64,000 nt of DNA, from NCBI GenBank assembly GCA_963931865.1, contig OZ007507.1, forward strand, positions 7,809,847 to 7,873,846. The letters run 5' to 3'. Made by a program: the position numbers and the translations under genes. Under the pieces are notes generated by a model that ran no database searches, was not told the DNA's origin, and saw nothing but the letters and a program-made list of their open reading frames with translations. This DNA comes from Axinella damicornis. Lineage: Eukaryota > Porifera > Demospongiae > Axinellida > Axinellidae. Below, piece by piece: positions 2,302-63,840 of this stretch (positions are counted from its first letter, which is position 1; each line of letters begins with the position of its first letter).

Positions 2302-2356
2302 ACTGAAAGGTAGCCTCGTTCCGCGTGAGGGCCTGGGTACGAGGCTAACTGAAAGG
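2302..2356. mobile_element. Micro-MITE, 37 bp, with 9 bp target duplication
   Basis: The element is 2311-2347, beginning TAGCCTCGTT and ending ACGAGGCTA. It is flanked on both sides by ACTGAAAGG (2302-2310 and 2348-2356). Complementary ends plus a perfect 9 bp direct repeat are direct evidence of transposition. At 37 bp it is one of the smallest insertions in the window. Confidence 0.85.
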
Positions 2357-2455
2357 AGGGATCCCAGTGCACCCAGAACATTCCTTTTTTTTTTTCGTTT
2401 TTGTTTTCTATGAAAATTCTAGCTTTGAAGGCAAAGGACACACAATAGCATTTAG

Positions 2456-2911
2456 CTAATATAAAGTGAGCCCTAGTTGACCAATGTTCACATTCGGATA
2501 TTGGATTCTAGATCGAGTTCGTGCAGCAACAGGCGTGGGAGCAATCGGAATCCAGGATATGCTGGAGAGTGTGCATTCTTTACGGACCTTCAGCCCAGGA
2601 ATTCCCTCACGGGTCTGGAAGACCACACCTCGGGCTGACTTGATGGAGGCTTGAAGTTTGTGTTCAGCATCTTCTTCATCACTGCTGTCAGATTTTGACC
2701 TCCTCTGATGCCTTCGATGCCGAACAGGTGTCCACCCTGCCTCTCCTGATGTAGTGAGATAGCTCACACCGGGAGTGCTTTCCTTTTCTTCAAACACGGC
2801 TTCCTTGCAGGCAGCCAGGTCGAGCTCTGGCGCACTCTGTTCGTCAACGCCACTAGCAACAAGCAGTTGAGCATCTTCAGTGCCGCCCCCACTCAAGTCG
2901 CTACCATGTTG
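2456..2911 (-). CDS. Unidentified open frame, possible exon or gag-like remnant
   Basis: An open frame of about 150 codons with protein-like composition. It has an acidic start, a basic patch (WTPVRHRRHQRRS), an acidic serine run (SDSSDEED) and a conserved-looking end (IPIAPTPVAARTRSRI) before the stop. It has no ATG: it opens after a TAG and could only begin by splicing or belong to a broken gene. The mixed acidic/basic layout would fit a structural ORF of a transposable element, but I do not recognise a family. It lies directly downstream of the ADAR-like remnant on the same strand. Confidence 0.35.
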   Translation of the reverse strand, partial: QHGSDLSGGGTEDAQLLVASGVDEQSAPELDLAACKEAVFEEKESTPGVSYLTTSGEAGWTPVRHRRHQRRSKSDSSDEEDAEHKLQASIKSARGVVFQTREGIPGLKVRKECTLSSISWIPIAPTPVAARTRSRIQYPNVNIGQLGLTLY

Positions 2912-3423
2912 CTATCTTGTCACTGCAGGCATGGTGAGGTGACATTCCTTTCCATTCTTGAGATCTTCCCACATCGATTTTCACGATTGATGCTGTTTGG
3001 ATGTTCGTTGATATCTGTACCAAATCAACCTGCAGCTCCATATCCACATGGCGCTTTGCTTATAGCAGAAATGAAGTACCTGACCGCAACTTGTGCTTGC
3101 CATGGATATACGTAGTGCTCTTCTGAGTATGGACTCTTCCTCCTTGCCTTCTGCACAGAGATTCATCAGTTAGGCATAATATTATAAGAATCTCAAGCCT
3201 GAATCATGGATCTTCTTGCAACAATTTCTGCATGGCAGTCATTGACAGCCAACCCATCCTCATTGAGATGTTCGTGAGAGATGCACTTTGTACCTGTTCC
3301 AATGGCAACAACAGTTTCTTCCCCCGAGCTCTCTGTAGCCATAATAACTGAGGACAGCACTTTCTTGAGTTTCTCAGCATTTTGTCGGGCAGCAGAAGCT
3401 ACTTCACAGTATTTGTCATGCAT
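2904..3423 (-). pseudogene. ADAR-type adenosine deaminase domain, decayed
   Basis: ADAR-family enzymes convert adenosine to inosine in double-stranded RNA, using zinc held by one His and two Cys. All three zinc-binding motifs are visible here in order on the minus strand. The first exon-like block, from ATG at 3421-3423, contains GTGTKCI and NDCHAEIVARRS (the HAE motif, 3226-3240). The next block, after a possible acceptor at 3151, contains ISKAPCGYGAA (the PCG motif, 3031-3051). The third motif is CSDKIATW (2904-2927), preceded in another frame by WEDLKNGKECHLTM. The blocks lie in different frames: a stop follows RRSMIQA with no nearby GT donor, another follows PCGYGAAG, and a one-base shift precedes CSDK. 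NDCHAEI and CSDKIA favour ADAR over tRNA deaminase ADAT1. No double-stranded RNA-binding domains were seen. It is probably a pseudogene, although assembly errors could explain some breaks. Confidence 0.6.
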
Positions 3424-3600
3424 GAGTTAGTTGTTGGACTTTACGAGCAATTCCTTGTATGTGTAAGTTCAAATTGGTAAGTTTAGAGTAAGGTAACACA
3501 CAAAATCCTAACCAGTCAAGTGAAATTGGTTGTGAAATTCTCTAGTTCCTTGTTAGGTGTTAACTCTGGATCTTCTTTGTGGTTAGCTTCTTTGTGGTCA

Positions 3601-3828
3601 TTATCCTCTAGCTACACCATTGCTTGCACTTTTGCTGGTAGTCTCTTCGCTATCCTCGTTCGCACTTTTGCTGGGAGTCTCTTCGCTATCCTCGGCATTG
3701 TCGCTCGCACTTTTGTTGATCATTTCGTTGCCGTTCGTGTGTCTTCGAATTCGCTTTGCTCTCGCTGCAGCTTCCTGCTCTACCAGATCTATAGATAGTC
3801 GTCTCTTAAACTGTCTTTCACAACCACA
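3601..3828 (-). CDS. Charged low-complexity exon, unidentified
   Basis: The minus-strand frame reads RLSIDLVEQEAAARAKRIRR, then NGNEMINKSASDNAEDSEET, then a repeated EDSEETxSKSA motif, then a stop. The charged, repeat-bearing composition is unlike random sequence. It lies just upstream of the ADAR-like block on the same strand and could be its N-terminal exon. A possible donor (CAATG/GTGTAG) lies near the end. There is no ATG at the start. Function is unknown. Confidence 0.3.
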   Translation of the reverse strand, partial: CGCERQFKRRLSIDLVEQEAAARAKRIRRHTNGNEMINKSASDNAEDSEETPSKSANEDSEETTSKSASNGVARG

Positions 3829-4101
3829 TCATGCTTCTTTCGCCTTTCTCAGCCATTGCATAGTATGCTATAAAAGACGTAATTTTGGGGGAATTTCCAT
3901 GGGTCACTCATGGGAAAGAATTACGTTACCTTTCCCATGGGTTACTCATGGGAAAGAATTACGTCATTTACTCCTTGGGTTACTCATGGGATAGAGTTAC
4001 GTGCTTTCATTGAACATAAAATGCCCCAAAGTAGGTACACAGTGTAACCTTCTCTAGGGAAAGACTTACGTCAATTGCCTCAAAGGGTTAATTATAATAT
4101 T

Positions 4102-4378
4102 ACAAGTAATAAAAAACATTTGAAAATGTAACAGGATGTAGGGATACCAGAACGGTAAAAAGTAAGGAAACAAGGCAGGGATGATCGCACAAAACGGTGA
4201 AGTATACAACCCCCCTACAGAGATCTTTTTCCATATACGTGTATAATGAAAAAAAGATATGTAGGGGGATTGTATACTTCACCGTTTTGTGCGATCATCC
4301 CTGCCTTGTTTCCTTACTTTTTACCGTTCTGGTATCCCTACATCCTGTTACATTTTCAAATGTTTTTTATTACTTGTT
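4102..4378. mobile_element. Near-perfect fold-back palindrome, ~277 bp
   Basis: Arms of about 120 bp (ACAAGTAATAAAAAACATTT at the left, its complement at the right end) enclose a loop of about 30 bp around 4225-4253. The two arms are identical or nearly so, which is why both strands give the same predicted peptide. The near-identity implies recent formation or gene-conversion-like maintenance. Confidence 0.85.
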
Positions 4379-5918
4379 TACGTCTTTTTTTTTAGCAGCA
4401 GCGCATGCAATTTGCCATCAGAGAGCAGAAGTCGGTGTCCACACAAGCCTACATGTAGGAGCCCTTGCTTTGGTATATGGACAATATTGACTCCGGTATT
4501 CACATTGGCTGAAGAATCAGACCCAAGTCAACCCTTTTCTGGATGGCAGTAATCCCTGTCTGAACTCTGAAGACCATAATATTATTAGCTATACCAGAAG
4601 TAGCAAGATTTATACATTGTTGAGTCTTTAGATAGGCATTCAGCCCTCTCACAGAACACAGTAGGCAGTAACATACATAAATCATACGCAGATTAACCAG
4701 TGTTTAGAATTTACCTCGGTTTTATGAAGTACGAAATTTAATAATACAACGGCGCAAGACACTTCTAATTCAGCGATCTTGAGTAATATTTACGTTCGTT
4801 GCTAAGTGATCGCGCATGCGTACAAACGAGAAAATGGCGTGACTAAAGAAGCCATAGTTATTGAGTGGGCAGCTGCAGCGGCCTGGTGAAAACTTGGAGG
4901 TTGCGAAAAAGCGATGGCCAGGTGCACTACTCGGTGTGAAATGCTGCTGTTTCGTGCGAAAACCATCATGAGAGATTGAGGCAACGCTGAGCTAGCCCGT
5001 CTGAAGAAGAAAGAAAGAAGAAGAAGAAAGAAAAACAATTTGCCCGTTTCGCGAGTACCTGGTGTGGTACTTTCGCGACGGTTTTTCGCGACGCGAAGAG
5101 TCTTGTTGGTCATGAAAACACTCGAAGATGAACGGTATGTGGTTATAAAGGCTTATAAGTGTACCATTTCTGAGATTTGGAGAGATTCTTTTGTATTAGC
5201 ATATATTGCGTGTACGTCGTATCCCTACATAGAGAGTCCACCGACTCTGTGATAATCCTGCAAGGAATTGACTCATTTAGATTCCCTCAAAAGTTACCGA
5301 AGGGGTACGTACCCCTGCTATTGATTCTTATCTAACGTAAAAGTTTCCCTATATATATATATGTGCAACCACCAACCTTCTCTGGGGAAAGATTTACGTC
5401 ATTTGCATCAAAAGGGATATTCCTGCAAATCATATCAAAGAATTGACCATGAAGCTCATTTAGATTCCATCAAGTCACCAAAGGGGTACCCCTGCTATTC
5501 TAACGTTAAAGTTTCCCTAATATAGGTAACCAGCAACCTTATCTAGGGAAAGAATTAAGTCCTTTATCTGAGGAGGGATTTCTGTAATATTATTTTTATG
5601 ACAGAATTGGTTATAATAATTATGAATCGCATTTAAATACATCCGGAATCACCAGTGGGATACCCTATATCGGACCTTCCATGGGTAAAGAAATACGTCT
5701 TTCACATGAACGGAGATTTTTCTGTAATTTGATCGACCATGAATCTCATTACACTTTTCAATCCTTGCCAATGAAGAGATTATCAGTTACGTATGGCATT
5801 GTATCATCATATCAACAGTTACTGACAATGTTGAAAGCAATGGTGAGTGAGAGAATCTCGTGTGAGGCTCCAGATATTTTATGTGATTCCAGTCATCAAG
5901 GATGGAGGAGAGCCTATA

Positions 5919-5980
5919 GCCCTTGTGTTCCCAGCGATGAAAAGCTGGGCGATGGCCTGGGAACGAGGCTAGCCCTTGTG
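5919..5980. mobile_element. Micro-MITE, left-truncated, with 9 bp target duplication
   Basis: GCCCTTGTG occurs at 5919-5927 and 5972-5980, flanking a 44 bp insert that ends GGGAACGAGGCTA. The left end starts TTCCCAG, lacking the usual TAGCCTCG. An AGCGATGAAAAGCTGGGCGA-type inner palindrome remains. Confidence 0.75.
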
Positions 5981-6239
5981 TACAAGTCAGAAAATGCAGC
6001 AGAACTGATAACTAGGTGCAGCCATACAGAGAGAATACATGAATATGCTATAATTATCATGTATGGTGTAGTTCCCAGGGTCCTTCCTCTGGTGAGTCGT
6101 GACTTTCATGGTCAATTCTTTCAGGAATTGCAGGATTATTATATAACCCTTTGAGGCAATTGACATAAGTCTTTCCCTAGAAAAGCTTACACAGTGTACC
6201 TACTTTGGTGCATTTTACGTTCAATGAAAGCCTGTCTAA

Positions 6240-6312
6240 TTCCCGTCATTCCGTTTTATTCCATTCATTCCATTTCATTCCATTTCACGTTCAATAGATT
6301 CGGGTATGCCTG
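6240..6312. repeat. ATTCC-rich dispersed repeat
   Basis: CGTCATTCCGTTTTATTCC is followed by ATTCC/ATTTC repeats and then CACGTTCAATAGATTCGGGT. The same string occurs at 23870-23965 and inverted at 22712-22842, so this is a defined mobile repeat and not only a microsatellite. Confidence 0.65.
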
Positions 6313-6995
6313 TTCTTGCTCCAAGCTGCACACAAGATTGCACTCAGCCATCCCAACCCAAGTACATGTACATACATGACTTCAACCACACCCACTCAAG
6401 GAATAAATTTAAAAATTGGCCGAGGAGGCCCTACAAGGTGAGAGAATTGCTTTCTAGGTCCATTTACGGTTGCCCACCTGGCTCCAAATGAGGGCTTCTC
6501 AAACCCAGACATGGGCATGCTGCTTCACCCTTCAGGTGAACCTCCTATCTCCCTCTTTCCCACCCTATGTGTTCACACAGAACCTTTCTACCAAGGATAT
6601 TGCAAAAAGTGACATCATGAAGCTGAAAGTCTTCACAACTGTGTTTGCAGCCATAAAGGATTGCATGCAGCTGCCATGCCCTCCCCGTGATTCGGAGGTG
6701 GCATTCACCTCAATCAAAAATTTGCATACTACAGTGGAACCTGTCTAATGCGGTCACCTGGGGGCCAAAAATATATAGACAGGTGGCTGCATTACCGAAA
6801 ACCTCTCTAAAGCGGTCATGTGAAGTTTTAGTGTGATTGACCTCACTACAAAGGTTCTTGCGACACTGAACAACTTTGATTCAAGTAAGTTCCATGAGGA
6901 AGACAACTAAGGACTTTAACTCTTTGCACGCGGGATATGCACTTATGAATAATTAATGAGTTAGAAAAACCAAAATGGAAGATAAAAAAAAAGAG

Positions 6996-7069
6996 TTCCT
7001 CTTTCTGGATTCGAACCACCGATGTCCGCATTAACACTCAAGCGCACTGCCGACTACACCAAATCGCCG
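6996..7069 (-). repeat. tRNA-derived SINE head
   Basis: On the minus strand an A-box-like TGGTGTAGTCGG and a perfect B box GGTTCGAATCC are spaced as in a tRNA. The acceptor and anticodon stems do not pair well, so a working tRNA is unlikely. It interrupts the region between ACTCTTTGCACGC (about 6923) and the left inverted repeat of the neighbouring transposon, which suggests an insertion. Confidence 0.5.
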
Positions 7070-7163
7070 TACTATCCTTCCCTAACGCATACAGGTATTT
7101 AAAAGCTAACCGTTCAAAATCGCCACGGGCACATAAATGTGCCCGTGGCGTGGTCGTGCATAT

Positions 7164-9243
7164 CTTTACGTAAAATAGTAAAAAATCCCACGTGTAGTAC
7201 GTGGGACGATTTTACGTGCCCAATCCCACGGGTAGTACGTGGGACGATTTTACGTCAACAACTCCACGTATAGTACGTGGGACGATTTTACGTACGCCCA
7301 AATGACGTAAAATCCCCCAGTGTAAGTTAGGAAAGTATAACTTATGTGGCAGGATTTTACGTCGATTGAAGTGACGTAAAATCTTCCCTCGTAAGATGCG
7401 TGGATCGACGGACGCAAGATACGACAATATGCACGAGTGATATGGAATATGAGTGGGAGGAGCTGGGTGAAACTGCAATTAGAGGGCGGGGCTAGGCTTA
7501 CTGTACAACTAGGGGGTGGGAGGAGCTGGGTAAAACTGCAATTGGAGGGAGGGCGGGGCTAGGCTAGCTGTACAGCTAGGGGGTGGGGCTAAGCTTGTGA
7601 GAGGGCTGCACGGATACTGTTCCATGACTGTACTTGATTATGCTGCAATTGGCATTCTCTAAGCACAAGGCATCCTCACAGTTGGGGGTGGGGCTGGACA
7701 TGTTCTATGGAATGGGTGGGGCTGGACATGTTCTATAGAATCTCCAGCACTAGACTTGACATGAAATAAAATACATAATGACTAATAATGTAAGATCTTA
7801 TCCATTGGATCTTATCCATAGAATCTCCAGCACTAGACTTGACATGAAATAAAATACATAATGACTAATAATGTAACCAGGGTTCGGTTATCCAGCTGAA
7901 GCATACAAGATAGCATTTCAGAAGGTGTTCAACATCTGCAAAGCAAGCCATGACGACATCAAGGGCATTGTAATCGATTGGAGTAAGGCAGAAATGAAAG
8001 GACTTAAACTGGAGAAAATCTTCCATGCAGCTCCTAAGAGGATGTCTGGTCCAATGGATAAGATCTTGTCAGATCGCATATATAGCGTCATCCATAGACA
8101 AAGGAAAAGAGAAGGCATGCAGTGTTCAGGACTTTGGCTTGAGCAATTACATATCTTGATGACCATGGACATTATATTAGCTTGTTTTCAAGCACTTTGC
8201 ATGTGGTGAGAAGAAAGTATCAGCTGTACGCAAAGCAATTCCATCACTCTCCGTCACCAACACATAAGCTGTCTGGGTTGACAAGAACTGTAAGTGGTTC
8301 ATTGCAAAGCGCTGGGCAAGTTGGTGGAGCAAGCCTGAACATTTGAAAATGTTGTGTGAGTCCATTCACTGATATGTCAGCTGAAACCTGGAAACTATGT
8401 CCAGCCACAACAAATGCCGTGGAAAGGAAGAATGTAAGGAAAACCAACCCCTTCCACTTAAAGTTGCCATAGCTAATGTGTACAGGTTGGACAAAGCAGT
8501 CTGCTTCAGGCACTTTGCAAGTCTAAGAAGTACAGGTACCTCCATAGCCCACCAAAGCAAGACTGCAGAATCTCAAGCAACTGAAGCAGGACATCGTAAG
8601 GAGGAACAGAGGAAGAGATCACACCAGGATCCGGATGCCCAATACGGCCCACCTGATATTTAGTCATTGGTCCGGCATGCAGGAAGTAGGGCAATCAGGT
8701 TAAGGTAAGGGCCAAGGCCAGTGCTGAATGCACATGCATATCCTTTAGCTACCTATATACTTAAAATACGTAGCTACTTCCTGCAAGACCAACCCCTTTA
8801 TTAACTGCACATGGCTATGGATCTGCTTAATGAGATTCATGGTTGACCTACGATTAATTCAGTGATCCTCCCAGCCCATCACGTCTAGCCCCGCCCACCA
8901 CGTCTAGCCCCGCCCACCATCTGTGCAGGCGGCGCCTTCTCGCGTATCTTCCACTCATATAATATAATCACTCATGCATATTCCGTATCTTGCGTCCGTC
9001 GCTCCACGCATCTTACGAGGGAAGATTTTACGTCACTTCAATCGACGTAAAATCCTGCCACATAAGTTACACTGTCCCAACTTACACTGGGGGATTTTAC
9101 GTCATTTGGGCGTACGTAAAATCGTCCCACGTACTGTACGTGGAGTTGTTGACGTAAAATCGTCCCACGTACTACCCGTGGGATTGGGCACGTAAAATCG
9201 TCCCACGTACAACACGTGGGATTTTTTACTATTTTACGTAAAG
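7164..9243. mobile_element. DNA transposon with 261 bp terminal inverted repeats
   Basis: The left arm 7164-7424 and right arm 8983-9243 are inverted copies of equal length, differing at a few positions only. Each arm holds three copies of a CGTGGGACGATTTTACGT-type subrepeat. The inside carries a degraded transposase-like gene (7886-8440). ACTCTTTGCACGC lies further out at the left (about 6920) and its complement just outside the right arm (about 9255), so the true ends may be slightly wider, with a SINE inserted on the left. No clear target duplication was identified. Confidence 0.8.
7886..8440 (+). pseudogene. Transposase-like gene remnant (possibly MULE-type)
   Basis: The frame reads GYPAEAYKIAFQKVFNICKA, then IKGIVIDWSKAEMKGL, then stops at 8207-8209. 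Protein-like sequence continues in other frames: CGEKKVSAVRKAIPSLSV, WFIAKRWASWWSKPEHLKML, and finally TNAVERKN (8409-8432). The pattern of a D-W-S core, a basic WxxRW-like stretch and a final TNAVERKN resembles uncharacterised invertebrate proteins with MULE-transposase-like domains, by memory of the pattern only. At least one frameshift and one stop break it. Its position between long inverted repeats supports a former transposase. Confidence 0.5.
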
Positions 9244-9695
9244 CTCTACGCGACGCGTGGCGTGCAAAGAGTATTGTAAAATACCTTGATTGTTTCATTT
9301 TTGTTCAGTTTGGCACTTTCTATAATGTTAAACTCACACACGCACGTACGCAACCCACGCGTGCACGTACGCAACGCACGCGCGCACTCGGTAGCCGTTA
9401 TTGGCAGTGTGCTATAGCGTGCTTGGGGTGGAGCAACGTAACCGCATTACGCAGGTGACTGCTATAGAAGAACAGTAAAGTATGGAGACTATGGGCTCAA
9501 ATTTCGGGACTTTCCCAAGTTGACCGCAATGTGGAGGTGACCGCGTTATTCAGGTGGCCGCTAAGGCAGGTCTCACTGTATCACTATTCAGGTGTGTATA
9601 TCTGCACCAGTAACTTCAGCATAATTATATAGTTGCAGTCTGGTTGACAGGATTCTACAACTGCAAAGTGCATCCACTGTTACCACTATAATATT

Positions 9696-9983
9696 ACTAG
9701 GGGCAAAAAAATTTTCCCCAAAAATTCTAGGAGATTTAGTGATGGCCTGTCACATTCCATGCACCTCATGAAAAACCTAAGAAACAAGAGGAAATGCCAT
9801 TAACCAGCCTCAGTCCCATCCCATTTATTAAAAAATGTAGAATTTAGGGATGGGATGGGATGGGACTGAGGCTGGTTAATGGCATTTCCTCTTGTTTCTT
9901 AGGTTTTTCATGAGGTGCATGGAATGTGACAGGCCATCACTAAATCTCCTAGAATTTTTGGGGAAAATTTTTTTGCCCCTAGT
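9696..9983. mobile_element. Perfect fold-back palindrome, ~288 bp
   Basis: Arms of about 129 bp begin ACTAGGGGCAAAAAAATTTT and end with its complement; the loop near 9825-9854 is about 30 bp. The arms look identical. It is similar in size and design to 4102-4378 but not in sequence, so two separate fold-back families or hairpin-forming events are present. Confidence 0.85.
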
Positions 9984-11525: not shown

Positions 11526-11585
11526 TAACACAAGTCACTGCTTTTCACATATGCGTAACACAAGTCACTGCTTTTCACATACGTG
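11526..11585. repeat. Two direct copies of a ~30 bp unit
   Basis: GTAACACAAGTCACTGCTTT followed by TCACATA occurs twice in tandem. This is a recent small duplication. Confidence 0.7.
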
Positions 11586-12324: not shown

Positions 12325-12325
<1 letters not shown>

Positions 12326-12369
<44 letters not shown>

Positions 12370-12375
12370 ACACAT
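12326..12375. repeat. 30-base C homopolymer followed by (CA)n
   Basis: Thirty consecutive C (12326-12355) run into ACACACAC. The left flank contains GGGTTTCATA, whose complement TATGAAACCC flanks another long C tract at 53358-53389, so the homopolymer may belong to a dispersed element. Confidence 0.9.
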
Positions 12376-12429
12376 GTCCACCTGACATGAATCAATCACG
12401 TGATGGACACTTCCCCATTTTTTGCCGCC

Positions 12430-13400: not shown

Positions 13401-13611
13401 TCAGTATGTTATAATTATATAGAAGCACGACCCAAAATACACATGTACTATCCCAAGAGAGGTTAGATGCGTTCTCCCTGTAGCCATGGCAACACTTGAG
13501 GCCAGGTAGAGACACATGCAGGGCAGCATCTCAGGCAGCCACCAGAGTGCGTACACCATGTCAATCTCGGGGTTTTCACCCTACAAGCATCACACAAGTG
13601 CCCTCAGCTAG

Positions 13612-13665: not shown

Positions 13666-13672
13666 CTCTGAA

Positions 13673-30784: not shown

Positions 30785-30887
30785 CAATTTGGGTAGCCTC
30801 GTTCCCAGTCCCATGCCCAGCGTTTCGTCCCTTGCAGTACGGTACTTCAAGCTGGGAGTGGGACTGGGAATGAGGCTACAATTTGGG
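30785..30887. mobile_element. Micro-MITE, 85 bp, with 9 bp target duplication
   Basis: The element 30794-30878 begins TAGCCTCGTTCCCAGTCCCA and ends TGGGACTGGGAATGAGGCTA. The flanks are CAATTTGGG on both sides (30785-30793 and 30879-30887). Confidence 0.9.
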
Positions 30888-31575: not shown

Positions 31576-32086
31576 CCACTATCAAATTGCTTCCTATAGC
31601 CCTGCATAGAAGCTGTTACCGTATATCTGGAAATTTTCGTGTAGTAAAATTTTCGTGTTGTATTATGTCGTGTCATAATATTTTCGTGGATTGGGTTACC
31701 CACGAAAAAATCTTTTACGACAACTTCTCTGACACGTCGGAGAAAAGAAGTACTGACGAAGGGCTTGCTGCGAGGCTACCACGTTTATCCGGAACCTTGG
31801 AAGCAGCTGTTAGCCAAGAACTCGTGAATGAAAACCTAGGAATGCCACAGACAGGTAACCGCATACACTATGGCAGTAAAGAACAAAACGATTATTGGAC
31901 ACTTACCGCCCGGCGAGAAAGGGCCGCCATGTTGGTGTACTCATCCGTATCCTCAAAATGATGACGTCAGTTGCAATGGGTACACCATGCAAGATGGAGG
32001 CACAAGTTTTAGTACAATTATATAATTATGGAAATGGCACGGAAAAATGGACCAGACCCTTCGCACAGGGAGGAAGGGTATGGGAC
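31576..32086. other. Non-coding; short inverted pair
   Basis: TTTTCGTGGATTGGGTTACC and CACGAAAAAATC (31680-31712) form a small inverted structure within an AT-rich repeat starting ACCGTATATCTGGAAATTTT. No gene was seen. Confidence 0.4.
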
Positions 32087-32160
32087 TAGTCTCGTACCCA
32101 GGCCCCGACTGCCCGAGAAAGAAAGGGCCTGGTATCCACTGTTTGCGCGTAATTATCTAG
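32087..32160. mobile_element. MITE fragment, TAGCCTCG family
   Basis: It starts TAGTCTCGTACCCAGGCCCC and contains AAAGGGCCTGGTATCCACTG. It is the inverse of 32600-32684. The right end is truncated near GCGCGTAATTATCTAG. Confidence 0.6.
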
Positions 32161-32564
32161 GCCACGAAGGGGGAGGGAGGGGCATATGACACAGGACATG
32201 GCCACGTGCCGATGCTGTGATGCTCTACCAGAACGAGATCGATCGAGCCGGGATATCACCAGAACTACACGACAACTAGCGCTATACTGCCCTGGATTGC
32301 TAGCAATTCTTGCTAACTTACAGTCCATGACGAACGGTAATCCTTCGTGTCACACAGACGTTTCAAACTCGGTCGGTGAGCCGTGAAATATCGTCTTTCA
32401 TTGTGCAAACAGCTGAAATAGAGGCGACCTGTTCCAGCTGGAGACACATACAGAAGTACTTACATGTAGGTCATAGGAGAGCGCTCAATCGTCGAACTCC
32501 GTCGTTGTTCAGGAAAGTTGCACGGACCACATAGTGGTAGTACACAATTTTGACGTCGCGGTTG

Positions 32565-32684
32565 TACAGACGTAACATGGTAGTCCACGATTTTCCCAAG
32601 ATTTCTGGGAAATTATGCGCATGCGCAAACAGTGGATACCAGGCCCTTTCTTTCTCGGGCGGTCGGGGCCTGGGTACGAGGCTA
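32565..32684. mobile_element. MITE, TAGCCTCG family, inverse of 32087-32160
   Basis: It ends GGGCCTGGGTACGAGGCTA. Its body (TTCTGGGAAATTATGCGCAT, CAGTGGATACCAGGCC) is shared with 140-254. With 32087-32160 it could form a 0.4 kb hairpin. Confidence 0.6.
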
Positions 32685-35459
32685 GTATGGGACATGCTCT
32701 TACATTCGAGTTGTCCCGAAGACGGAATGTTGACCTGATGGATCAGAAGAGTGATTGCTAATGACATCATGGGAATGAGGCTTCAGTGGCACCAGTGACT
32801 AGACATGGCAAATTTCAGTGTTAAGCTGTGTTACCTGCAAGTTCTTTACAAAAGTAGAGGAAGCATGCAGCGAGCAGGTTGACTGTGATTGTACGTATGG
32901 TATCACAGTTGATCGCCACTTACCCACACAATGTCATACTAAATTGCATTCCGTCAGGACAATGCGAATATGTATAGGCACGTGCCCAGACCCTTCCTCC
33001 TCCTCCCGTGCGAAGGGTATGGTTCCTCGACTAGGAAAAGTGATGTAAACCTTGTAAGTGCAATGGGTCTATATGAAGAAATGATTACAAATATCGGTTT
33101 GCCTGGCCCATGACCACGTGCATCACATAACCTTTTTCAAGTCCTCTCCACTAGCACTGCTGCCTGCAGATGGCAGGGATTCAGGACGGTAGGAAGGAAC
33201 GAAGGTGTTCTTTTTCTGGTTCAGCTCGCCTCATGCTTCTTACGCCGATATCTTCTAAAATCTAAAATACCTATCTAAAATAACGACGATTGCAAGATTC
33301 CAGCCCCACCCATTCAAGCCCATGTAGACAAACCGATAACATGCCACCACCTTCCCATCTGCTAATGCTGGAGCCACATCGCCAGCACCTCTGCAATATG
33401 CTAGAGCCACCTCTGCAATGCTGGAACGAGCAAGCCAGCACCTCGAAGTTGCTTTTGAAACTTGGCAACTATGTACCAAGGTCGTGATGGTCCAACCTCC
33501 TCTACAAAATATCAAAATCACATCACCTTCAGGATGCTCGATGTGTGGGGCTGGTTTTTCCAACACGTCGGCTCGTATTGGGCGAGGCTAGCTCGGTCCT
33601 CGCTGTGCAATGGGCGGGGCTGGATCCTGAGTACGGTAGCCAAATCTAGCGTCTGGTTCCGAAACAAGTTCCCTCACTGCAGCAGGTCGTGGGCTATATC
33701 GTCGGTCCTTCAACACAACATCAATCGTCCCAGGACTGCTAGTGCTCGCCATGTTCACCGTTGGTGAGTGGTCTGGAGGAAGGGGCTGGTAAATAATTTG
33801 TGATCCTGTTGGTGGGTGCCTTTATCATATTAACACAAGGGATCTATCAGTGTAGTCACAGGTGGCACAGATAGTGGCAGATTGTGACCAATCACTATAA
33901 ATTATGCATTGCTAGCCCCAGTCTTGCATACACACCTTTATTCCATTATACGGTGGTCGGATCGTTTTTGCTTCGAAGGCCACTAGTAAAGATAATCTGT
34001 GGAGGATTGATTTTACTAGTGGATTCATTCGGACGGATTGATTCCGCTAGCGGATACGTTTCACCTGGATCGCTATAGGTCCGGATCGGATTTCCTGTGA
34101 CAACAGCTGTAGTCTCGCGTAAATGCTTCAACACTTTCACACACTGAGAAAAACTCATGGAACTCAGCTATACATGTACCAAATGATCCATGTTTGCTTC
34201 GGAGAGCACCCAGGCAGCGCGCAGCAACGACAATCAGCTACTCCCAAAAAGGCAAATACATTCATCCAAATGCATTCTCATTTTATCTTTTCACCGTAGA
34301 ATAACTATGCCTTCACAGATTAGGTACAGTCCCGTTTATATTTTTCTTCAGTTAGCTGAATGGGCTCTCTTAGCACCTTCCCTGCTTTGCACTGCACTGC
34401 CACTGCTTTTTGGTTCCCTGCAATCCGTGACTATCGACGTCGACAGGAAATATATAAGCTGGTAGCCTACTCCTATAGTTATACAACCAGGTGACAAAAA
34501 GTGGTACTTGCCATTGTTTTATAATTAGCTGCCTTTCAACTTCTGCCAAACCAGAAAAATAACCTGAAATGGATGTCCGGCAGGGCTTCTTGGCAACAGG
34601 CTCACCATCGTTTGTTATTGGGATGGGCTTTGTAAACTTGCTAATCACGTGATTGTGTTTCCGTTCCCCAGGTAACTGTTGGATAACGGCAGAAGAAAGA
34701 CTGTGGATCACTGGTACATGTACGTATGTGGTGTTTTGTGTTTTACACAATGCACTTCTATCCTGTGTGGCCATTTCCAATTCTCCATGTTGGCCTGGGA
34801 GCAAGGCTGCCTCATTCCCAGGATGGATTCAGATACCTAACCATGCATCTACCACTCATGCTGGTTCAGTAGTACCTAGATATTCAGTATTACGCATGTA
34901 CTGGCTGTTTCCATTGGTAGACGTAACCGAGGAATGCAGATGCTTACCAGCGTTCAGCGGTCAAGTTCAGTTGCTATTACATCTGCACAACTCACCGTAA
35001 CTCAGTAGTCTCAAGTTTGTTTTGACTCCTTGAAGTCATCAAATGGAGTGGCTCGAACAGCAGGCAGGATTTCATTTGGGGGGACCAAAGGGGAGGGGCA
35101 TTCACTTGAATTTTTGCTCCCCCCCTCCCCCTTGAAGAATACCCATCAAGTGTAATTTTGCAAGGTCATGATTGGTCATGAGAACTTTGACAGTATTGGT
35201 CATGAGAACTTTGACCTGCTGAATCACGACATTGTCAACCCCCTTATGTTGGAAGGTGAGAAATATACCTCCATCCACTTTAGTTGATGCTATTAATATA
35301 TTAAGATTTAACGTGTGTGTGTGTGAGTGACGGAAGTGGGACGTTCATGTGGCGGGACTAGACTGGTGACACGCGACCTTCGTACTTCAATTATTTACTG
35401 CACCTATGAAGAAAGTTCTAAAACATTGGGCATTGGCTTGAATCTTCAAGAACAGGTGA
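32685..35459. other. No gene recognised
   Basis: Short frames only. Near 34370-34420 a stretch (TTTGCACTGCACTGCCACTG) resembles the inverse of the repeat at 31390 and 53000. ACTAGTAAAGATAATCTG-type inverted AT motifs lie at 33985-34020. Confidence 0.4.
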
Positions 35460-39337: not shown

Positions 39338-41642
39338 CTAGGAAAAGTTCCCCATATCCTGCTTCTTTGTGGCCAGCTGCAGGAGGTCACAAGAGCATCA
39401 CAGATCCGTAGTCTGGTTTCCCGATGTGGAATGACGTCATCAATGAATCCTGTGAATAGAAGATGCTCATGTTAGAAGCTCAGCAACAACAGCACAAATG
39501 CAAAGCACACTAATCATGCATACACACACACACACACATGTACACACCACACATGTACACACACCACATATGCATGTAGCCTTGTTCCCAGGCCGTTCCC
39601 ACCGCCAGTATTTCATCGCTTCCAGGATGAAATGGCGGGGGGAGGCCTGGGAGATCTGGTCATGTGCAATGACATCAGGTAGACAGATGGTAGACACATG
39701 GATGGCGGTGCCCAACCCTTTATAATACCTGTTTTGCGTCGGTCCGTCCCCGGCATTGTGAACAACGAACAGTATCGATCGGCTGCCTTGCGAATGTTCT
39801 GACATCCAGCCTTTGGATGGACAGTACAAGACAGACGTTGAGATTCTTCATTGGGTACCACCCTCCGTGTGTCTACCACGTGTCTACCTGATGGCACCGC
39901 ACGTGACCAGATCTCCCAACCTTCCCCCTGCCGTATTTCATACTGGAAGTAAATACTGGTGGTGGGAACGGCCTGGGAATGAGGCATGTATACACACTCA
40001 CAGTATGCTACCGTATCCTATCAAAACTGGAGGTGTAGAAGGCTTGCATGGGAGTGAGGCTGATCACTTCAAGCTGAACTCAAGAAGCTGAAAACCTGTC
40101 ACAGTGCTACAACATGGCACATTCGACAGTTAAACTAATACTTAGCAGACAGACCAAGCTTACTCTTAGCAGCTGCCTGGAATGGAGGGCAGAATGTGCT
40201 TTCATACTCTTTCTCCAGGGCACCTACGTAGTTCTGTGTGCACGTGGAAGTGGATAAACACATGTACAGACAATGGCGTATCAGTGGTCAGTATTTTCCT
40301 CACAGTCTAGAACAATAACAACGAGCTCAAGTGGGTTTACATTATGTGACCATGCCGCACAGAAAAGGTAGTCTCATGCCCAGACCACACCCCATCGTGG
40401 GGAGAAATGGTTTGGTGAACGAAGTCAAATTTCTTGGGCTTATTATTGGAATGTGGTAAGAGAGATGGCGAGATTGTTATTACGTAGTAATCGCTTTGAA
40501 TACTCACAAGCTGGAGAAGACAATGGTGCCTTTGCCATGCCAGTTTGCCCTTAGGGCTAGACTGTGTATGGCAATGCTACGTATGTTGTGGCGACAACTT
40601 CTGTGCTCGATTGTGCTAGTTGTGAGCCCTGTGACATCGTTTACGAAGGATCAAGGTGAGAGATTATGAAGCGAGGTCAGTAAAGGGATCAAGTACAAAG
40701 AACGGCCCCCTCTTGGCGCAAACTAATGCTGCCCTAGCCCTAAGGGGCTGTTCTTCAGATTTGACCCCAGCAAAGTGCCTAAAAGGACTGCCAAACAAAC
40801 GGGAAGCAGATTCGATGGACGGCGAAGGATGTTTCAAGAACCTTCTATGGGCCGTGAGTGAGCAGCAAAAGGCTAGTATGTACACTGTACATCTATCCCG
40901 ATATGAGTAGCCTTGGTCGACACAGGAGCCTTAAGCGGACACTTTCACAGGTACTTAACACCATGGTATTATACATTGATTACACAGTCCGTAGTATATA
41001 TTATGTTCAAGCCCAAGAAATTCGACTAGACCATTTCACCCTGCAAGAGGGTGTGGCCTGGGCACGAGACTACACAGTGGTGCTGAACAATGAAATGTGT
41101 GTAGATATGGTAATACTGTAAAGGCAATGCGTCATGCATGAGCATCAAGTGACCAAACATGGCCTATTATCACATGTGCACTATTTCTGGTCTGGTAAAA
41201 ACTCATGCAGGAAGGATTACATGTAGGTGCCTGCAATAACAGAGTTCATTTCTGATGTTGCAATAATGTAGGGTAGTGGAAAACATGTGGCAAGAGTTTT
41301 ACGGAATGCCATTACTCATCCCAAATGAAATACCACATTCTCCAATATAACTTATCTCTCTTACCTTCCGGACTCTTGGTATGATGTAAAATTGCTACAG
41401 AATGGGAACAGATAATAACGCATGTAATATCCACATGCTCCAGCATCCAATGCTTCTGTTATGCTCATCTTGTAGAATCAGATACCCGGTAATATAATAA
41501 TGGTGCTCCTCTATTACAAAAGAAAGCTACAAGTACAACAGGGCCGAATCTTCATGCAGTGTTGACTGACCTTTGTACCCATCACAGCAATGGGTCCGGC
41601 ATAGTTGATGTCACCACGAAGATGTCATCACGTCATTGGCAC
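39338..41642 (-). CDS. Acyl-CoA carboxylase beta (PCCB-like) carboxyltransferase, C-terminal exons, decayed
   Basis: Propionyl-CoA carboxylase beta transfers the carboxyl group from biotin to propionyl-CoA in mitochondria. Three minus-strand exons match the conserved C-terminus in order. 41571-41642 contains HLRGDINYAGPIAVMGTK (family pattern HLxGDxNYAWPTAEIAVMGAK), preceded in another frame by GANDVM. 40164-40223 reads ALEKEYESTFCPPFQAAAK (family: EYxxxFANPFPAAxRG). 39338-39449 reads FIDDVIPHRETRLRICDAL (family: GFxDDIIxPxxTRxRIC). The splice phase between the last two joins as AAKRFIDDVI. Damage: the first exon lacks codons and carries a stop in the expected frame; after RICDAL the usual LLATKKQDMGNFS lies two bases out of frame. 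The exon for the intervening segment was not found. A duplicate of the first exon is at 43452-43523, also with a stop. Confidence 0.6.
39572..39985. mobile_element. ~410 bp MITE, TAGCCTCG family, copy 1
   Basis: It starts TAGCCTTGTTCCCAGGCCGT then CCACCGCCAGTATTTCATCG. The right end (ATACTGGTGGTGGGAACGGC, CTGGGAATGAGGC) is its inverse. The interior has inner inverted arms (GGTAGACAGATGGTAGACAC / GTGTCTACC...). It lies in the intron between the PCCB-like exons. Confidence 0.75.
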
Positions 41643-41730
41643 CTACAGAAACATTGAATGACATCATCAAGTAACAATAGAGTAATTGTTCAATGATCGG
41701 ATGGTACAGTCAGGCAGTTTACTCCCTTTC

Positions 41731-41924
41731 TTATATTAGGTACACCGGGTCTTCCATCACCACTGTGAAGGTCGACAGCAGTGTGTCTGGGTAGAGAGCA
41801 CGGGGCTTACTGGCCTGTAGTTGGCAAAGACAGTGGCTTCCAAAGACAAATTTTGGATTCAGACAATCTATCTCAAATGTAGATGTTTTGCTTGGGAAGG
41901 TGCCCTCAATCTCAACACTATACA
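41731..41924 (-). CDS. Unidentified terminal exon
   Basis: After a possible acceptor (TTGCTGTATAG) the frame reads VEIEGTFPSKTSTFEIDCLN, PKFVFGSHCLCQLQ, SKPRALYPDTLLSTFTVVME and stops after DPVYLI. It is protein-like but I do not recognise it. It ends 90 bases before the first PCCB-like exon on the same strand. Copy B of the duplication breaks off just before this point. Confidence 0.3.
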
Positions 41925-42054
41925 GCAATAGTCTTGTCCCAGACACTGACCCGACTATACATGCATTTGCGGCACACATGTGCATGTGCATGTGCATGCC
42001 GAGTCAGCAGACCGTATCACACACATGGCGCAAAGTTCAGGAGGTGAATCTCTC

Positions 42055-42124
42055 TCCCTCCCTCCATCCCCTCCCTCCCTCCCTCCCCTCCCTCCCTCCC
42101 TCCCTCCCTCCCTCCCTCCCTCCC
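42055..42124. repeat. (CCTC)n / (CCCT)n microsatellite
   Basis: About 70 bases of CCTCCCTC repeats at the left boundary of duplication copy B. Confidence 0.95.
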
Positions 42125-42429
42125 CATGCACAAAGAACGGCCCCCTCTCGGTGCAAACTAATGCTGGCCCTAGCCCTAGGAGGCCATTCATGACCCCAGT
42201 AAAAGTGCCTAAAAGGACTGCCAAACAAACAGGAAGCAGATTCGATGGACGGCAAAGGATGCTCAAAAAATTTCTATGGGCTGCGAGTGAGCGGCAAAAG
42301 GTTAGTACATCTTCTCTCCCGATATGAGTAGCCATGATTGTGCTTGGTCGACACAGGAGCCTTCAGCAGACACTTTCGCAGGTACTTAATACCACGGTAT
42401 TATACATTGCTTACACAAGTCCATAGTCT

Positions 42430-42953
42430 ACCGTATTTCCAGGAATAGATGCCACGGCGTTTATTTATTTTGTTGTTCAGTTTGGTGCGGCGACTATTCG
42501 AGGGCGGTGTTTATTACTTTGGGCAGTATGACCGCGCCACGTACACAGCACTCCTCCCTGTCGAATTGCATTGACAAGCTGGTGAGAAGGAATTGATCTT
42601 ACAAATTCGGCCTAGAAACACACAGCAACTCACAATGGGCAAGATTCGGCAAGTGCCGTCAGCGACTTGAGCACTGAGCGCTTTGATTAGCCATCGCTTT
42701 GCGACAAAGCGGTATCCACGGGACGAGGATGATGGTCTTCGTGGGATGCATATGGAGGGGGATGACGACAAGCTCGAGGACTCAGACTGTCTTTCATGGT
42801 ACGACTAGACTGTTGGAAAGTGTCCACGTCGTGTTGTCATACTTTGCGCACGTGCTAACCCGCCACGGCGCTTATTCGAGGGGGCATTTATTTCACTCAG
42901 CGCCTCCAATTATGCGGCGTTTATTCGAGGCGGCGTCTATTTGCGGAAATACA
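42430..42953. mobile_element. MITE with CCGTATTTCC / GGAAATACAG ends
   Basis: It is present in duplication copy B but absent at the same point in copy A, which defines it as an insertion. The ends ACCGTATTTCC and GGAAATACAG are inverted. Inside, TTATTCGAGG-type units recur in both directions. It contains no gene. Confidence 0.75.
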
Positions 42954-43688
42954 GCAAGCCCAAGAAATTCGACTTCGTTCACCAGACCATTTCTCCCCGC
43001 AAGAGGGCGTGGTCTGGGCACGAGACTACAGAAAAGACGGTTTTAAGTGGTGCTGAACAATGTAGATATGGTATTACTACGTAGAATATGCAGTAAAGGC
43101 AATGCATGGGCATCAAGTGACCAAACATGCACACGTGCCTAGAGCTCTGGTCTGGCAAAACTCATGCAGGAAGGATTAGGTGCCTGCAATAACAGAGTTC
43201 ATTTCTGGATGTTTACCATTACTCATCCCAAATGAAATACCACATTCTCTGATGTAATTTATCTCTCTTACCTTCCGGACTCTTGGTATGATGTAAAATT
43301 GCTACAGAATGGGAACAGATAATAACGCATGTAATATCCACATGCTCCAGCATACAATGCTTCTGTTATGCTCATCTTCAGATAATGGTGCTACTCTGTT
43401 ACAATAGAAAGCTACAAGTACACCATGGCAGAATCTTCAGTGATGACTGACCTTTGCACCCATCACAGCAATGGGTCAGGCATAGTTGATGTCACCACGA
43501 AGATGCCATCACGTCAGTGGCACCTACAGAAACATTGACATCATCAACTAACAATAGAGTAATTATTGTTCAATGATCGGATGGTACAGTCGGGCAGTTT
43601 ACTCCCTTTTCTCCATGGGAGAAGGCTGCATTGCGCCTTCAATGCATCTTGAAGAGTATCTTCCATGCAAAGACTTTGAGCAAACTGC

Positions 43689-45302: not shown

Positions 45303-46003
45303 ATTCACTTGTAGAAAAAGTCAAACAAGAAGCTTGCAACAAAAGTTTCTGCTCGATTTCAGACCCTGGCTAGCTACACGGAAGGCAGAAAAGCATGCAG
45401 GTATTTGTACAACTTACTACCTTGGTAGGCTGGTCGTTCGTCGGCTGAAGGTAGTCATGATCAGTTGTTTGTAGCTGCTTGCTACAGAATTTTAGTTTTA
45501 CATAAAATTGTCTGCAAACACGTTTAATTAGAAATGCAGTTAGCATCCACGTGGTCAAATTTTGACTACCCTACAATGTATATAGCTAGGCGCCTAGCAA
45601 GCAACTGACTGCAGAGAGGAGGGAGGGTGCACCATACAGACGTGGTCACATTGGCCAAGGTTCGTTATAAAGAGTCACCTTTCGCACATACCCGTCAGAT
45701 GCCAATTCCTTGGTGGCTAAATGATGGGATCTTGATTGCAGCCATTGAATTGTAGGGCCTGCTCCCTCCATTCATATTCCATAGTACTGATTGGGATTAG
45801 TGGTGTGGAACAGAAGGGTCCCATGTGACTAGGTTCTCCCAGCTAGAGAGTTGTGGTAGAATGGAATGGACTTCCTATTAAAGAGGTTTGGCAAGGGTTT
45901 GGGAATGAGGCTAGGCATGGGAACAAGGCTAAAGGCCTGGCAGTGAGACTAAGCCTGGGAATGAGGCTAGGCCTGGGAACGAGGCTAGGCCTGGGAATAG
46001 GGT
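45303..46003. other. Non-coding; start of GGCCTGGGAATGAGGCTA tandem motif
   Basis: From about 45890, repeated GGGAATGAGGCTAGGC-like units lead into the MITE at 46004. Nothing was recognised before that. Confidence 0.5.
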
Positions 46004-46358: not shown

Positions 46359-46662
46359 CAGGCTAGGCCTGGGAATGTGGCTAGGCCTGGGAATGGGGCT
46401 AGGGCCTGAGAATGGGGCTGGGCCTGGGAATGGGGCTGGGCCTGGGTACTAGGCTAGGCCTGGGAATGGGGCTAGGGCCTGAGAATGTGGCTAGGCCTGG
46501 GAATGGGGCTAGGCCTGGGAATGGGGCTTGGCCTGGGAACGGGGCTAGGGCCTGGGAATGAGGCTGGGCCTGGGAATGTGGCTAGGGCCTGAGAATGGGG
46601 CTAGTCCTGGGAATGGGGCTAGGCCTGGGAATGGGGCTAGGCCTGGGAATGAGGCTAGGTCT
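46359..46662. repeat. 18 bp minisatellite derived from the MITE end
   Basis: About seventeen copies of GGCTAGGCCTGGGAATGG with variants. The unit is the MITE terminus (CCTGGGAACGAGGCTA) repeated head to tail. Confidence 0.9.
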
Positions 46663-61942: not shown

Positions 61943-62009
61943 GGCATGGCCTAGCCTCGTTCCCAGGCTCTCGAGAACGAGAGCCCGGGAACGAGGGCTA
62001 GGCATGGCC
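61943..62009. mobile_element. Micro-MITE, 49 bp, with 9 bp target duplication
   Basis: GGCATGGCC at 61943-61951 and 62001-62009 flanks an insert that begins TAGCCTCGTTCCCAGGCTCT and ends with its complement. The centre is CTCGAGAACGAGAG. It is almost fully palindromic. Confidence 0.9.
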
Positions 62010-62394: not shown

Positions 62395-62588
62395 AGAATG
62401 TTCCGGCATGGCCGAACCTGCCTTGGACACTACAAGACACCTCAGATTGCAATTGACTTGACTACCCTTGACGGGTTTACCACGATGGTGGCTAACGAGG
62501 GCCTGGAGAAGGCTGAGCCTATGGACCCAGGCCCCCCGGGACCGACGGCTTTACATCCCCTCCGAAGGATGTGGTGTGAACTATTTCA
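62395..62588 (+). CDS. Possible exon of an unidentified gene
   Basis: Between TACCTTCTTTGCAG and TTTCAG/GTGAAAC, the frame reads MFRHGRTCLGHYKTPQIAID, LTTLDGFTTMVANEGLEKAE and PGPPGPTALHPLRRMWCELF. Composition is protein-like over the full 194 bases and both splice sites are good. A preceding stretch (62281-62370, SNVSITQLYGLPFRDRRLVR) may be another exon but lacks a usable donor. I do not recognise the family. Confidence 0.35.
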
Positions 62589-62670
62589 GGTGAAACGCCT
62601 TCAAGAACACACCTACTCATTTTTTAGGGGGTAGAGCTGAGTCAACTCCTAGGAGAAAGAAAATCTCCTA

Positions 62671-62745
62671 TGGCAATGATGGGATTCGAACCTGCAACCT
62701 TTCGATTAGCAGTCGAATGCTTTAACCACTAGCTCGGCCACCAGC
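62671..62745 (-). repeat. tRNA-derived SINE head (tRNA-Ser-GCT-like)
   Basis: The minus strand has A box TGGCCGAGCTAGTGG, a perfect anticodon stem TTCGA/TCGAA around loop CTGCTAA, and B box GGTTCGAATCC. There is no long variable arm, as true tRNA-Ser requires, and the acceptor and T stems pair poorly, so this is a SINE or tRNA pseudogene. A short hairpin (GGAGATTTTCTTTCTCC) follows. Confidence 0.6.
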
Positions 62746-62848
62746 AGTGTGCAGAGAATGCACTGACATAGCCCAACCCTGGTGGACACTGTATGACTTA
62801 GCTCAGCTGATATGCGTGGTTCTGCAGTTCTCAGGATGACTCACTGTA

Positions 62849-63081
62849 CCAATCCCTTAGCCTCGTACCCAGTCCCACACCCAGCTTTCTGTCGCTTGCA
62901 GTGCAGTAAAGCGAGGAGATGGCTGAATAACACGCAAAACGTAGCGTCTTCGTTCTGAAAATTTTGCCATTTTCGATTACGTCATGCTCATGTGAGGAAA
63001 TGTACCAGGCCCTCCCCGCTTTACCGTACTGCAAGCGATGGAAAGCTGGGCATGGGACTGGGAACGAGGCTACCAATCCCT
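62849..63081. mobile_element. MITE, 215 bp, TAGCCTCG family, with 9 bp target duplication
   Basis: CCAATCCCT at 62849-62857 and 63073-63081 flanks an element beginning TAGCCTCGTACCCAGTCCCA and ending TGGGACTGGGAACGAGGCTA. The outer arms are about 45 bp. The centre (AACGTAGCGTCTTCGTTCTG) also occurs in the 12744-13190 element. Confidence 0.9.
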
Positions 63082-63125
63082 AGCTGTGTGCTCAGTCATG
63101 CTATTATTGTAATATAAACAGGCAG

Positions 63126-63840
63126 AATGAAAATCAGTTCATTTCGTTTCCGAGACCATGCTAATGCTGAAAATCACCTCTGCTTCAATGTAAGCCAGTG
63201 CAAATCAATGCTCATTAATTTCTAGAAAAAGAAACCCTCTTCAATGTCCAGAGTTGACAGTTTGTGGTCAAGTATTTGAACAGGTGGAATGCTTTAAATA
63301 TTTGGGTGTACTACTCACCTCCGACCTGAGCATACTGAAACCAATTTTGCTCGAAGGCCAAGAAACTCTTGGGTATGATATATCGCCGCTTTTCAGAACA
63401 TTCAAACCCTGACACTCTATTGCATCTGTTTGAAAGCATGGTTCGGCCACATCTTGAGTATGCTTCCCAGGTATGGGACCCATACCTTCAGAAAGATATC
63501 AAACTGCTTGAGGGAGTCCAGAAGTTTGCCCTCAGGATATCAGTGTAGCAAGAGCTATTACATGAGCTATGAGGACCTACTGGACACCTTCCAGCTTAGC
63601 CTCGTTCCCAGGCACTCGGTAATTGGAGCGCCTGGGAACGAGGCTACTTCCAGCTCCCTGACCTATCAACGAGGAGACTTTATCTCAGATTCTCATTACT
63701 GTTTAAGATTGTACACGAGTCATTCTTTTTCCCTTCCAACATTTTTGTAACCATGAACTCCACATCACGTCAGGCTAAACCGTACATGTATCGTCAACCT
63801 TTTGCTCATACCAACGAATATGACAACTCTGTCTACTTTT
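63126..63840 (+). pseudogene. Reverse transcriptase C-terminus of a second non-LTR element
   Basis: Fragments in different frames match the end of a retrotransposon reverse transcriptase: FEQVECFKYLGVLLTSDLS (about 63279 onward), then KKLLGMIYRRFSEHSNPDTL, then MVRPHLEYASQVWDPYLQKD (63438 onward), with a stop after KFALRISV at 63547. Beyond a 50 bp MITE the frame resumes (PDLSTRRLYLRFSLLFKIVH) to a stop at 63840. Several shifts show decay. This is a different lineage from the 16.6-22.6 kb element. Confidence 0.7.
63588..63655. mobile_element. Micro-MITE, 50 bp, with 9 bp target duplication
   Basis: CTTCCAGCT at 63588-63596 and 63647-63655 flanks the 50 bp insert TAGCCTCGTTCCCAGGCACT ... GCCTGGGAACGAGGCTA. 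The insertion splits the reverse transcriptase remnant, and removing it with one target copy rejoins the reading frame. Confidence 0.95.

What the first reader, a model, noticed from the sequence alone, without database searches (positions are those of the whole stretch)
2302..63655. Family of 37-215 bp palindromic micro-insertions with perfect 9 bp target duplications
Six copies (2302-2356, 5919-5980, 30785-30887, 61943-62009, 62849-63081, 63588-63655) share TAGCCTCGTNCCCAG ends and have identical 9 bp direct repeats: ACTGAAAGG, GCCCTTGTG, CAATTTGGG, GGCATGGCC, CCAATCCCT, CTTCCAGCT. Elements as small as 37 bp are below the usual MITE size, and different cores suggest that only the ends matter for movement. 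A 9 bp duplication fits MULE, Merlin or some other superfamilies, so the mobilising enzyme is unknown.
Basis: seen in the sequence. Interest (0 to 1): 0.8.

Follow-up and report, generated by a model that had tools for sequence, protein, structure and literature searches.

The report
Mobile DNA hairpins of 43 bases
This genome carries very many tiny hairpin-shaped jumping DNA pieces, some only 43 bases long, which have settled in new places and each time duplicated nine bases of the target; they are remarkably small for mobile DNA, and the enzyme that moves them is not yet known.

Summary
In detail: all six copies have exact 9-bp flanking repeats, though three have damaged ends, and a seventh copy (32087-32684, 598 bp, exact repeat) was missed. 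The 15-base end occurs 32,117 times in the 226.5-Mb genome, 0 times reversed. Exact repeats in the sample are 9 bp long, bar one 4-bp match. Empty sites with a single 9-mer exist for four of 29 elements searched.

The new result is the size. A 43-bp unit matches at 67 places. I read 13 of them; with the sampled L009 site they make 8 independent insertions, each with its own 9-bp repeat (0-2 mismatches), and 2 without. 49- and 50-bp units also have independent sites. Of 28 places with the 43-mer's left half, 24 are 43-mers and none of the other four is longer than 58 bp. So these units moved at this size rather than shrinking afterwards.

They are ultra-short MITEs. A MULE transposase is the likeliest mover, but none with these ends was found and one candidate was rejected. 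How 43 bp is synapsed is unexplained.

The parts
2302..2356 (.). 37-bp element with 9-bp duplications ACTGAAAGG
5919..5980 (.). 44-bp element, left end lacking 8 bases, exact duplications GCCCTTGTG
30785..30887 (.). 85-bp element with duplications CAATTTGGG; empty paralogue at window 29353-29400
32078..32693 (.). 598-bp element with duplications GTATGGGAC; member of a ~600-bp subfamily
40360..43037 (.). probable 2,660-bp composite element (duplication with 1 mismatch); only short open frames; holds another dispersed repeat
45900..45998 (.). 18-bp tandem array of the end motif
46361..46659 (.). 18-bp tandem array of the end motif, beside an element starting at 46003
61943..62009 (.). 49-bp element with duplications GGCATGGCC; one extra base in the right end
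62849..63081 (.). 215-bp element with duplications CCAATCCCT
63588..63655 (.). 50-bp element with duplications CTTCCAGCT inside a decayed LINE; the same flanks occur at three other places

Best explanation
These are non-autonomous DNA transposons (MITEs): a large set of related subfamilies with ends TAG[CT]CTCG..CCCAG and a fixed 9-bp target duplication, moved in trans by a DDE transposase that reads the ends, most likely of the Mutator-like (MULE) kind. Complete copies range from about 35 to 600 bp (perhaps 2.7 kb). The smallest recurrent members, hairpins of 43-50 bp, are mobile units themselves: one 43-bp unit sits at eight unrelated sites, each with its own 9-bp duplication. After insertion some copies decay, are truncated, ride inside other repeats, or expand into tandem arrays whose unit is one duplication plus the element or its end. 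Shown: insertion, 9-bp duplication, recurrence of the same unit with different duplications. Inferred: cut-and-paste chemistry, action in trans, MULE identity.
For: Exact repeats are 9 bp and of no other length from 5 to 12, beyond re-dealt flanks. Empty paralogues with one 9-mer (0-3 mismatches) for the 40-, 42-, 43- and 85-bp elements. 43-mer: eight independent sites with own duplications at 0-2 mismatches, counting the L009 site and a 3-mismatch variant found at five places with shared flanks. 50-mer: window site plus three further sites with own duplications and one shifted by a base. 49-mer: two sites. Left-half test: 24 of 28 places are 43-mers, the rest 42-58 bp or truncated. ~600-bp subfamily. 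51 MULE-domain matches; animal MULEs make 8-9 bp duplications (PMC5225508, passages).
Against: No transposase gene between these ends was found. One MULE family that stood between two exact ends has other termini. Many end pairs have no repeat; 2 of 13 43-mer places read lack it. The 49-mer exists at only two sites. Several repeated copies are passengers in larger repeats, not separate insertions. Only three micro-units were tested genome-wide; the general count did not complete.
Confidence: 0.8

Rival explanations
1. In-situ collapse: longer foldback elements insert with a 9-bp duplication and later lose their middle by slippage on the palindrome or by incomplete repair after excision, leaving hairpin stubs that never move as such.
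For: Hairpin DNA is prone to internal deletion (established knowledge). The 37-bp window copy looks like a deleted form of the 62-bp hairpin in L020 (comparison by eye). The 49-mer is nearly confined to one array. Many micro cores in the sample occur once.
Against: The same 43-mer sits at eight independent sites with different duplications, and none of 28 places with its left half is in an element longer than 58 bp, so no longer source is in the assembly. Collapse may still explain single copies.
Confidence: 0.12
2. The mover is not a MULE but another transposase that also makes 9-bp duplications, possibly undescribed.
For: No MULE with TAG[CT]CTCG termini was seen in the 25 of 51 MULE matches held as DNA. 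KDZ-type transposases are also encoded (24 matches).
Against: Merlin has no match. KDZ groups are described with 7- or 8-bp duplications (PMC12730594, passages). 8-9 bp is typical of MULEs. Most MULE loci were held with 1.5-kb flanks only, so ends further out would be missed. The PF00872 search did not complete.
Confidence: 0.35
3. The repeated micro copies spread as parts of larger repeats or segmental duplications, not by their own movement.
For: True for some: four copies of the 50-mer and five of a 43-mer variant share flanks; six or seven 43-mers lie together at C4:2.99-3.09 Mb, and the two of these that I read share flanks and the duplication GCTCGCCCC.
Against: Other copies have unrelated flanks and their own 9-bp duplications.
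Confidence: 0.03

Closest known systems
MULE-derived non-autonomous elements, e.g. derivatives of Muta1 of Aedes aegypti (PMC5225508; passages read)
   Same: Non-coding, shared ends, 8-9 bp target duplications, many copies, variable interiors.
   Different: Muta1 has 145-bp inverted repeats and the tested derivatives are of ~500 bp; here ends of about 15 bp suffice and whole elements are 43-50 bp. No autonomous partner found here.
Tetris foldback transposon of Drosophila virilis (PMC4079207; passages read)
   Same: Foldback structure, mostly 8-10 bp duplications, no autonomous copy found, gives rise to tandem satellite arrays.
   Different: Inverted repeats up to 1,735 bp; its arrays grow from internal repeats, whereas here the array unit is the target duplication plus the element or its end.
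Tm1 Mutator/Foldback family of root-knot nematodes (PMC3169594; search listing only)
   Same: Mutator/foldback type; the listing shows the phrase '9 bp target site' in the paper.
   Different: Not compared in detail; not read.
Bacterial REP hairpins moved by RAYT enzymes (recalled, no call)
   Same: Very short mobile hairpins.
   Different: As recalled, moved as single strands without target duplication; here there is a 9-bp duplication.

Membership tests
MITE (non-autonomous DNA transposon) | inverted ends and a target duplication of fixed length | tested here: met
   not every copy keeps the repeat
MITE (non-autonomous DNA transposon) | no transposase gene, many copies of the same unit | tested here: met
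   units of 37-600 bp; ~600-bp unit with 943 candidates of which 40 scored, 43-mer at 67 places
MITE (non-autonomous DNA transposon) | insertion shown by empty sites | tested here: met
   clear for 4 of 29 elements searched
MITE (non-autonomous DNA transposon) | ends shared with an autonomous element | tested here: inconclusive
   none found; only part of the genome could be read
MULE (Mutator-like) | 8-10 bp target duplication | tested here: met
   9 bp; range from PMC5225508 passages
MULE (Mutator-like) | MULE transposase gene between the same ends | tested here: inconclusive
   one family tested and not met; 25 of 51 matches held as DNA, most with short flanks
MULE (Mutator-like) | long inverted repeats (over 100 bp typical) | tested here: not met
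   64-nt arms in the 598-bp copy, about 15-20 in micro-units; typical, not universal: two of 14 families in PMC5225508 have under 60 bp
Merlin | IS1595-type transposase present in the genome | tested here: not met
   0 matches to PF12762
KDZ (Kyakuja-Dileera-Zisupton) | 7- or 8-bp target duplication | tested here: not met
   duplication is 9 bp; 7-8 bp from PMC12730594 passages

The most novel reading that the evidence does not exclude
The 43-50 bp units move as folded strands (a hairpin or an extruded cruciform arm) and not as looped double-stranded DNA: the transposase reads the duplex stem, joins the folded strand into a target cut with a 9-bp stagger, and replication opens it. That would explain how such units escape the stiffness limit, why the recurrent ones fold as near-complete hairpins, and why some copies lack 8-12 bases of one end right next to an intact 9-bp duplication (three cases).
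Probability: 0.12. Interest if true: 0.92.

Novelty: new variant of a known kind. Interest (0 to 1): 0.62.

Why it matters
If a 43-bp duplex can be transposed, a DNA transposon needs little more than its two end sites, and models of end synapsis need either pairing of ends on different copies or a folded substrate. Such units are easily missed by repeat annotation (inference): an estimated 10,700 complete copies of up to 65 bp (4,600-21,000, from 8 copies in 170 kb) are a hidden source of short duplications, hairpins and satellite seeds.

Tried and rejected
MULE family with a 967-aa frame (L041, L043, L044) as the mobiliser: rejected; its right end is ...AAAACGCCCG and the TAGCC end lies inside all three copies. 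At first the two exact ends around it looked like its termini.

MULE loci L021-L040: separate small elements or single ends lie nearby in L027, L028, L031 and L040, but where two or more copies could be compared the family boundary is not a TAGCC end (L024/L025 and L027/L029). L042 and L065: no good ends in the stretch held. Merlin: no match. The 2,660-bp window element: only short frames; it shares a 75%-identical stretch of about 510-550 bp with L028, but that stretch lies outside the part of L028 shared with its MULE relatives, so it is another repeat.

The exact hairpin pair in viral and prokaryotic collections: 0 and 0. End motifs as letters in the paper library: 2 unrelated papers. Searches on very small MITEs or minimal transposon length listed no report of animal MITEs near 43 bp; listings only, open-licence library, those terms. 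Other searches did not identify the host. The F-box protein at 60911-61582 matches 78 proteins, none with a name; the organism stays unidentified.

A 26-bp candidate (L013, 8286-8311) was set aside: three copies of ACTCCCCAC show a compound or duplicated insertion.
Full report
OBSERVATION. The six reported copies are in the window. Their 9-mers are identical pairs and the elements are 37, 44, 85, 49, 215 and 50 bp. Three have damaged ends (2302 altered inside the left end, 5919 without the outer 8 bases on the left, 61943 with one extra base on the right). A seventh copy of 598 bp with an exact repeat lies at 32087-32684, and a probable eighth of 2,660 bp (one mismatch) at 40369-43028.

HOW COMMON. 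The genome (G000, 226.5 Mb, 120 contigs) has 15,493 and 16,624 exact copies of the 15-base end on the two strands, 0 of the reversed control. I read 20 stretches of 10 kb: 17 (L003-L019, 170 kb) chosen by round coordinates, three because one search showed clusters there.

DUPLICATION LENGTH. In the 170 kb, 42 nearest end pairs gave 9 exact repeats of length 9, one of length 4 and none of 5-8 or 10-13. With a mutual-nearest rule over the window and 39 loci, ends exact to the degenerate consensus and length up to 130 bp: 8 of 15 exact, 2 with one mismatch, 1 with two, 4 with three or more; no exact repeat of another length from 5 to 12. With up to two end mismatches the exact share is 12 of 40. 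Pairs with good ends and no repeat exist, e.g. L003 1442-1482 and L018 2715-2793. Re-dealing flanks among 314 pairs gave mean 0.75, maximum 4, against 22 observed. A search blind to the end sequence (L001 left out as an array) found 20 pairs with an exact 9-bp repeat, 15 with TAG[CT]CT[CT] ends, one of them a cross pair of two L009 copies.

SIZES. The 170 kb gave 15 copies with repeats of at most one mismatch. I drop one, the 26-bp candidate in L013. Of 14 left, 8 are 35-56 bp (two are one duplicated insertion in L009) and 6 are 87-381 bp. Scaled up, 8 copies give about 10,700 (4,600-21,000) and 14 about 18,700 (10,200-31,300) genome-wide. The 598-bp unit has 943 candidates, of which 40 were scored: the window copy and 39 others at 83-97% identity, mostly full length.

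EMPTY SITES. I searched the flanks of 29 elements, joined over one 9-mer, against the sample. Clear empty paralogues were seen for four: the 40-bp element of L012 (two paralogues), the 42-bp element of L010 (two), the 43-bp element of L009 (window 51747-51822) and the 85-bp element of the window (29353-29400); the single 9-mer there has 0-3 mismatches. One more, for 32087, is too diverged to judge. For the others no junction-spanning paralogue was found.

DO THE MICRO-UNITS MOVE AT THAT SIZE? Three units were searched genome-wide with up to 3 mismatches, reversed controls 0. The 49-mer: 23 matches, 22 in one array on C1 and one on C12. The 50-mer: 8 places. The 43-mer: 78 strand matches, 11 places being matched on both strands, hence 67 places. 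I read flanks of the 7 further 50-mer places and of 13 of the 67 43-mer places.

For the 50-mer, the window copy and three others share flanks (one insertion, CTTCCAGCT, in a decayed LINE). Three others have their own repeats (GAGATACAA/GAGATACGA, ACTAAGACT exact, AATGCAGAG/GATGCAGAG) and one has the repeat shifted by one base.

For the 43-mer, of eight places with 0-1 mismatches six have their own repeats with 0, 2, 1, 0, 1 and 0 mismatches and two have none (7 and 4). Five copies of a 3-mismatch variant share one insertion (CTGCTTGCT), one of them with a different right flank. With L009 (GCTCGCCCC, in the sample) that makes eight independent sites with a repeat and two without.

The alternative was repeated collapse of a longer element with the same end hairpin. 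Of 28 places with the 29-base left half (at most 1 mismatch), 24 are in the 43-mer list. I read the other four: one is 42 bp with repeats of one mismatch; one has an altered right end and repeats of one mismatch; one lacks 9 bases of the right end next to an intact repeat; one is 58 bp, with extra bases in the right end and inverted instead of direct flanks. None is part of a long element. The C12 copy of the 49-mer has its own repeat (TATCTTGCC/TATCTTACC).

ARRAYS. At C1:1337812 there are 22 head-to-tail units of AGCCTGGAC plus the 49-bp element, closed by one more AGCCTGGAC: an ordinary insertion expanded together with its duplication. Two other arrays repeat 9-11 bases of left flank plus the first 16 bases of an element. 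The window has two arrays of the end motif. Unequal exchange or slippage between the duplications is the simple reading (inference).

MECHANISM. A fixed 9-bp duplication points to a staggered cut by a DDE-type transposase acting on the ends (established knowledge). MULE is the best guess: 51 domain matches, many with long open frames (domain confirmed in four of four predicted MULE proteins scanned, one of them below the curated cut-off), and 8-9 bp duplications in animal MULEs (PMC5225508, passages). Merlin has no match; KDZ elements, also present, make 7-8 bp (PMC12730594, passages). The direct test failed so far: a MULE family standing between two exact ends has other termini, and the other loci held show no matching termini.

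How 43 bp is synapsed is open: it is under a third of the 147-bp persistence length given in PMC3687335 (passages). Pairing of ends on two copies, or a folded strand, would avoid the problem. All twelve micro sequences folded form a single hairpin, from -9.2 kcal/mol (the 35- and 37-bp ones, interrupted) to -34.5 (62 bp) with DNA parameters. Two inverted ends fold anyway, so this alone is no evidence for the folded model.

ODD ENDS. Three copies lack 8, 9 and 12 bases of one end directly beside an intact 9-bp repeat (window 5928, L067, L015). I cannot explain this; a one-sided joining or trimming of one end before joining would do it (inference).

TARGET. In 42 duplications from these calls, partly gathered by hand, the first base is rarely T (3 of 42) and the last rarely A (3 of 42), a weak symmetric bias.

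VERDICT. A real, very abundant MITE superfamily with an exceptional lower size limit: a new variant of a known kind. Host species and enzyme remain unidentified.

Noticed in passing
window 5928-5971; L067 21-54; L015 1843-1888: Elements lacking 8, 9 and 12 bases of one end directly beside an intact 9-bp duplication.
   Followed up: partly
L001 4813-6097; L002 6311-6840; L020 2733-2922; window 45900-45998 and 46361-46659: Tandem arrays built from one target duplication plus an element or its end, or from the end motif alone.
   Followed up: partly
window 56145-58019 (-): Long open frame of 624 aa with a piggyBac-type domain (PF13843, E 3.6e-89).
   Followed up: no
window 16867-21643 (+) and about 63073-64000: LINE-type reverse transcriptase frames (PF00078); the second, decayed one holds the 50-bp element (by eye).
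   Followed up: no
window 22719-23953: 1,235-bp element with GGCATACCCGAATC inverted ends, flanked by CGATCAAAG on both sides, ends rich in ATTCC/AATGG-like repeats.
   Followed up: no
L014 4325-4736: 412-bp element with TAGTGATGCACCGATA ends and an 8-bp duplication CAAAGTAT, hAT-like by recall.
   Followed up: no
L011 6023-6086; L006 4904-4987; L018 9287-9547: Other palindromic or inverted-end elements with exact 9-bp duplications and different ends (CAGTCTAGCC, TAGTCTCGCG, AGGAGTGC), perhaps relatives.
   Followed up: no
window 62671-62742 (-): Weak tRNA-family match (RF00005, 32.2 bits) not called by ARAGORN; perhaps a tRNA-derived repeat.
   Followed up: no
window 42429-42941; L028 1887-2395: A dispersed repeat of about 510 bp with 27-base inverted ends in L028, found inside the 2,660-bp element and beside a truncated MULE.
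   Followed up: partly
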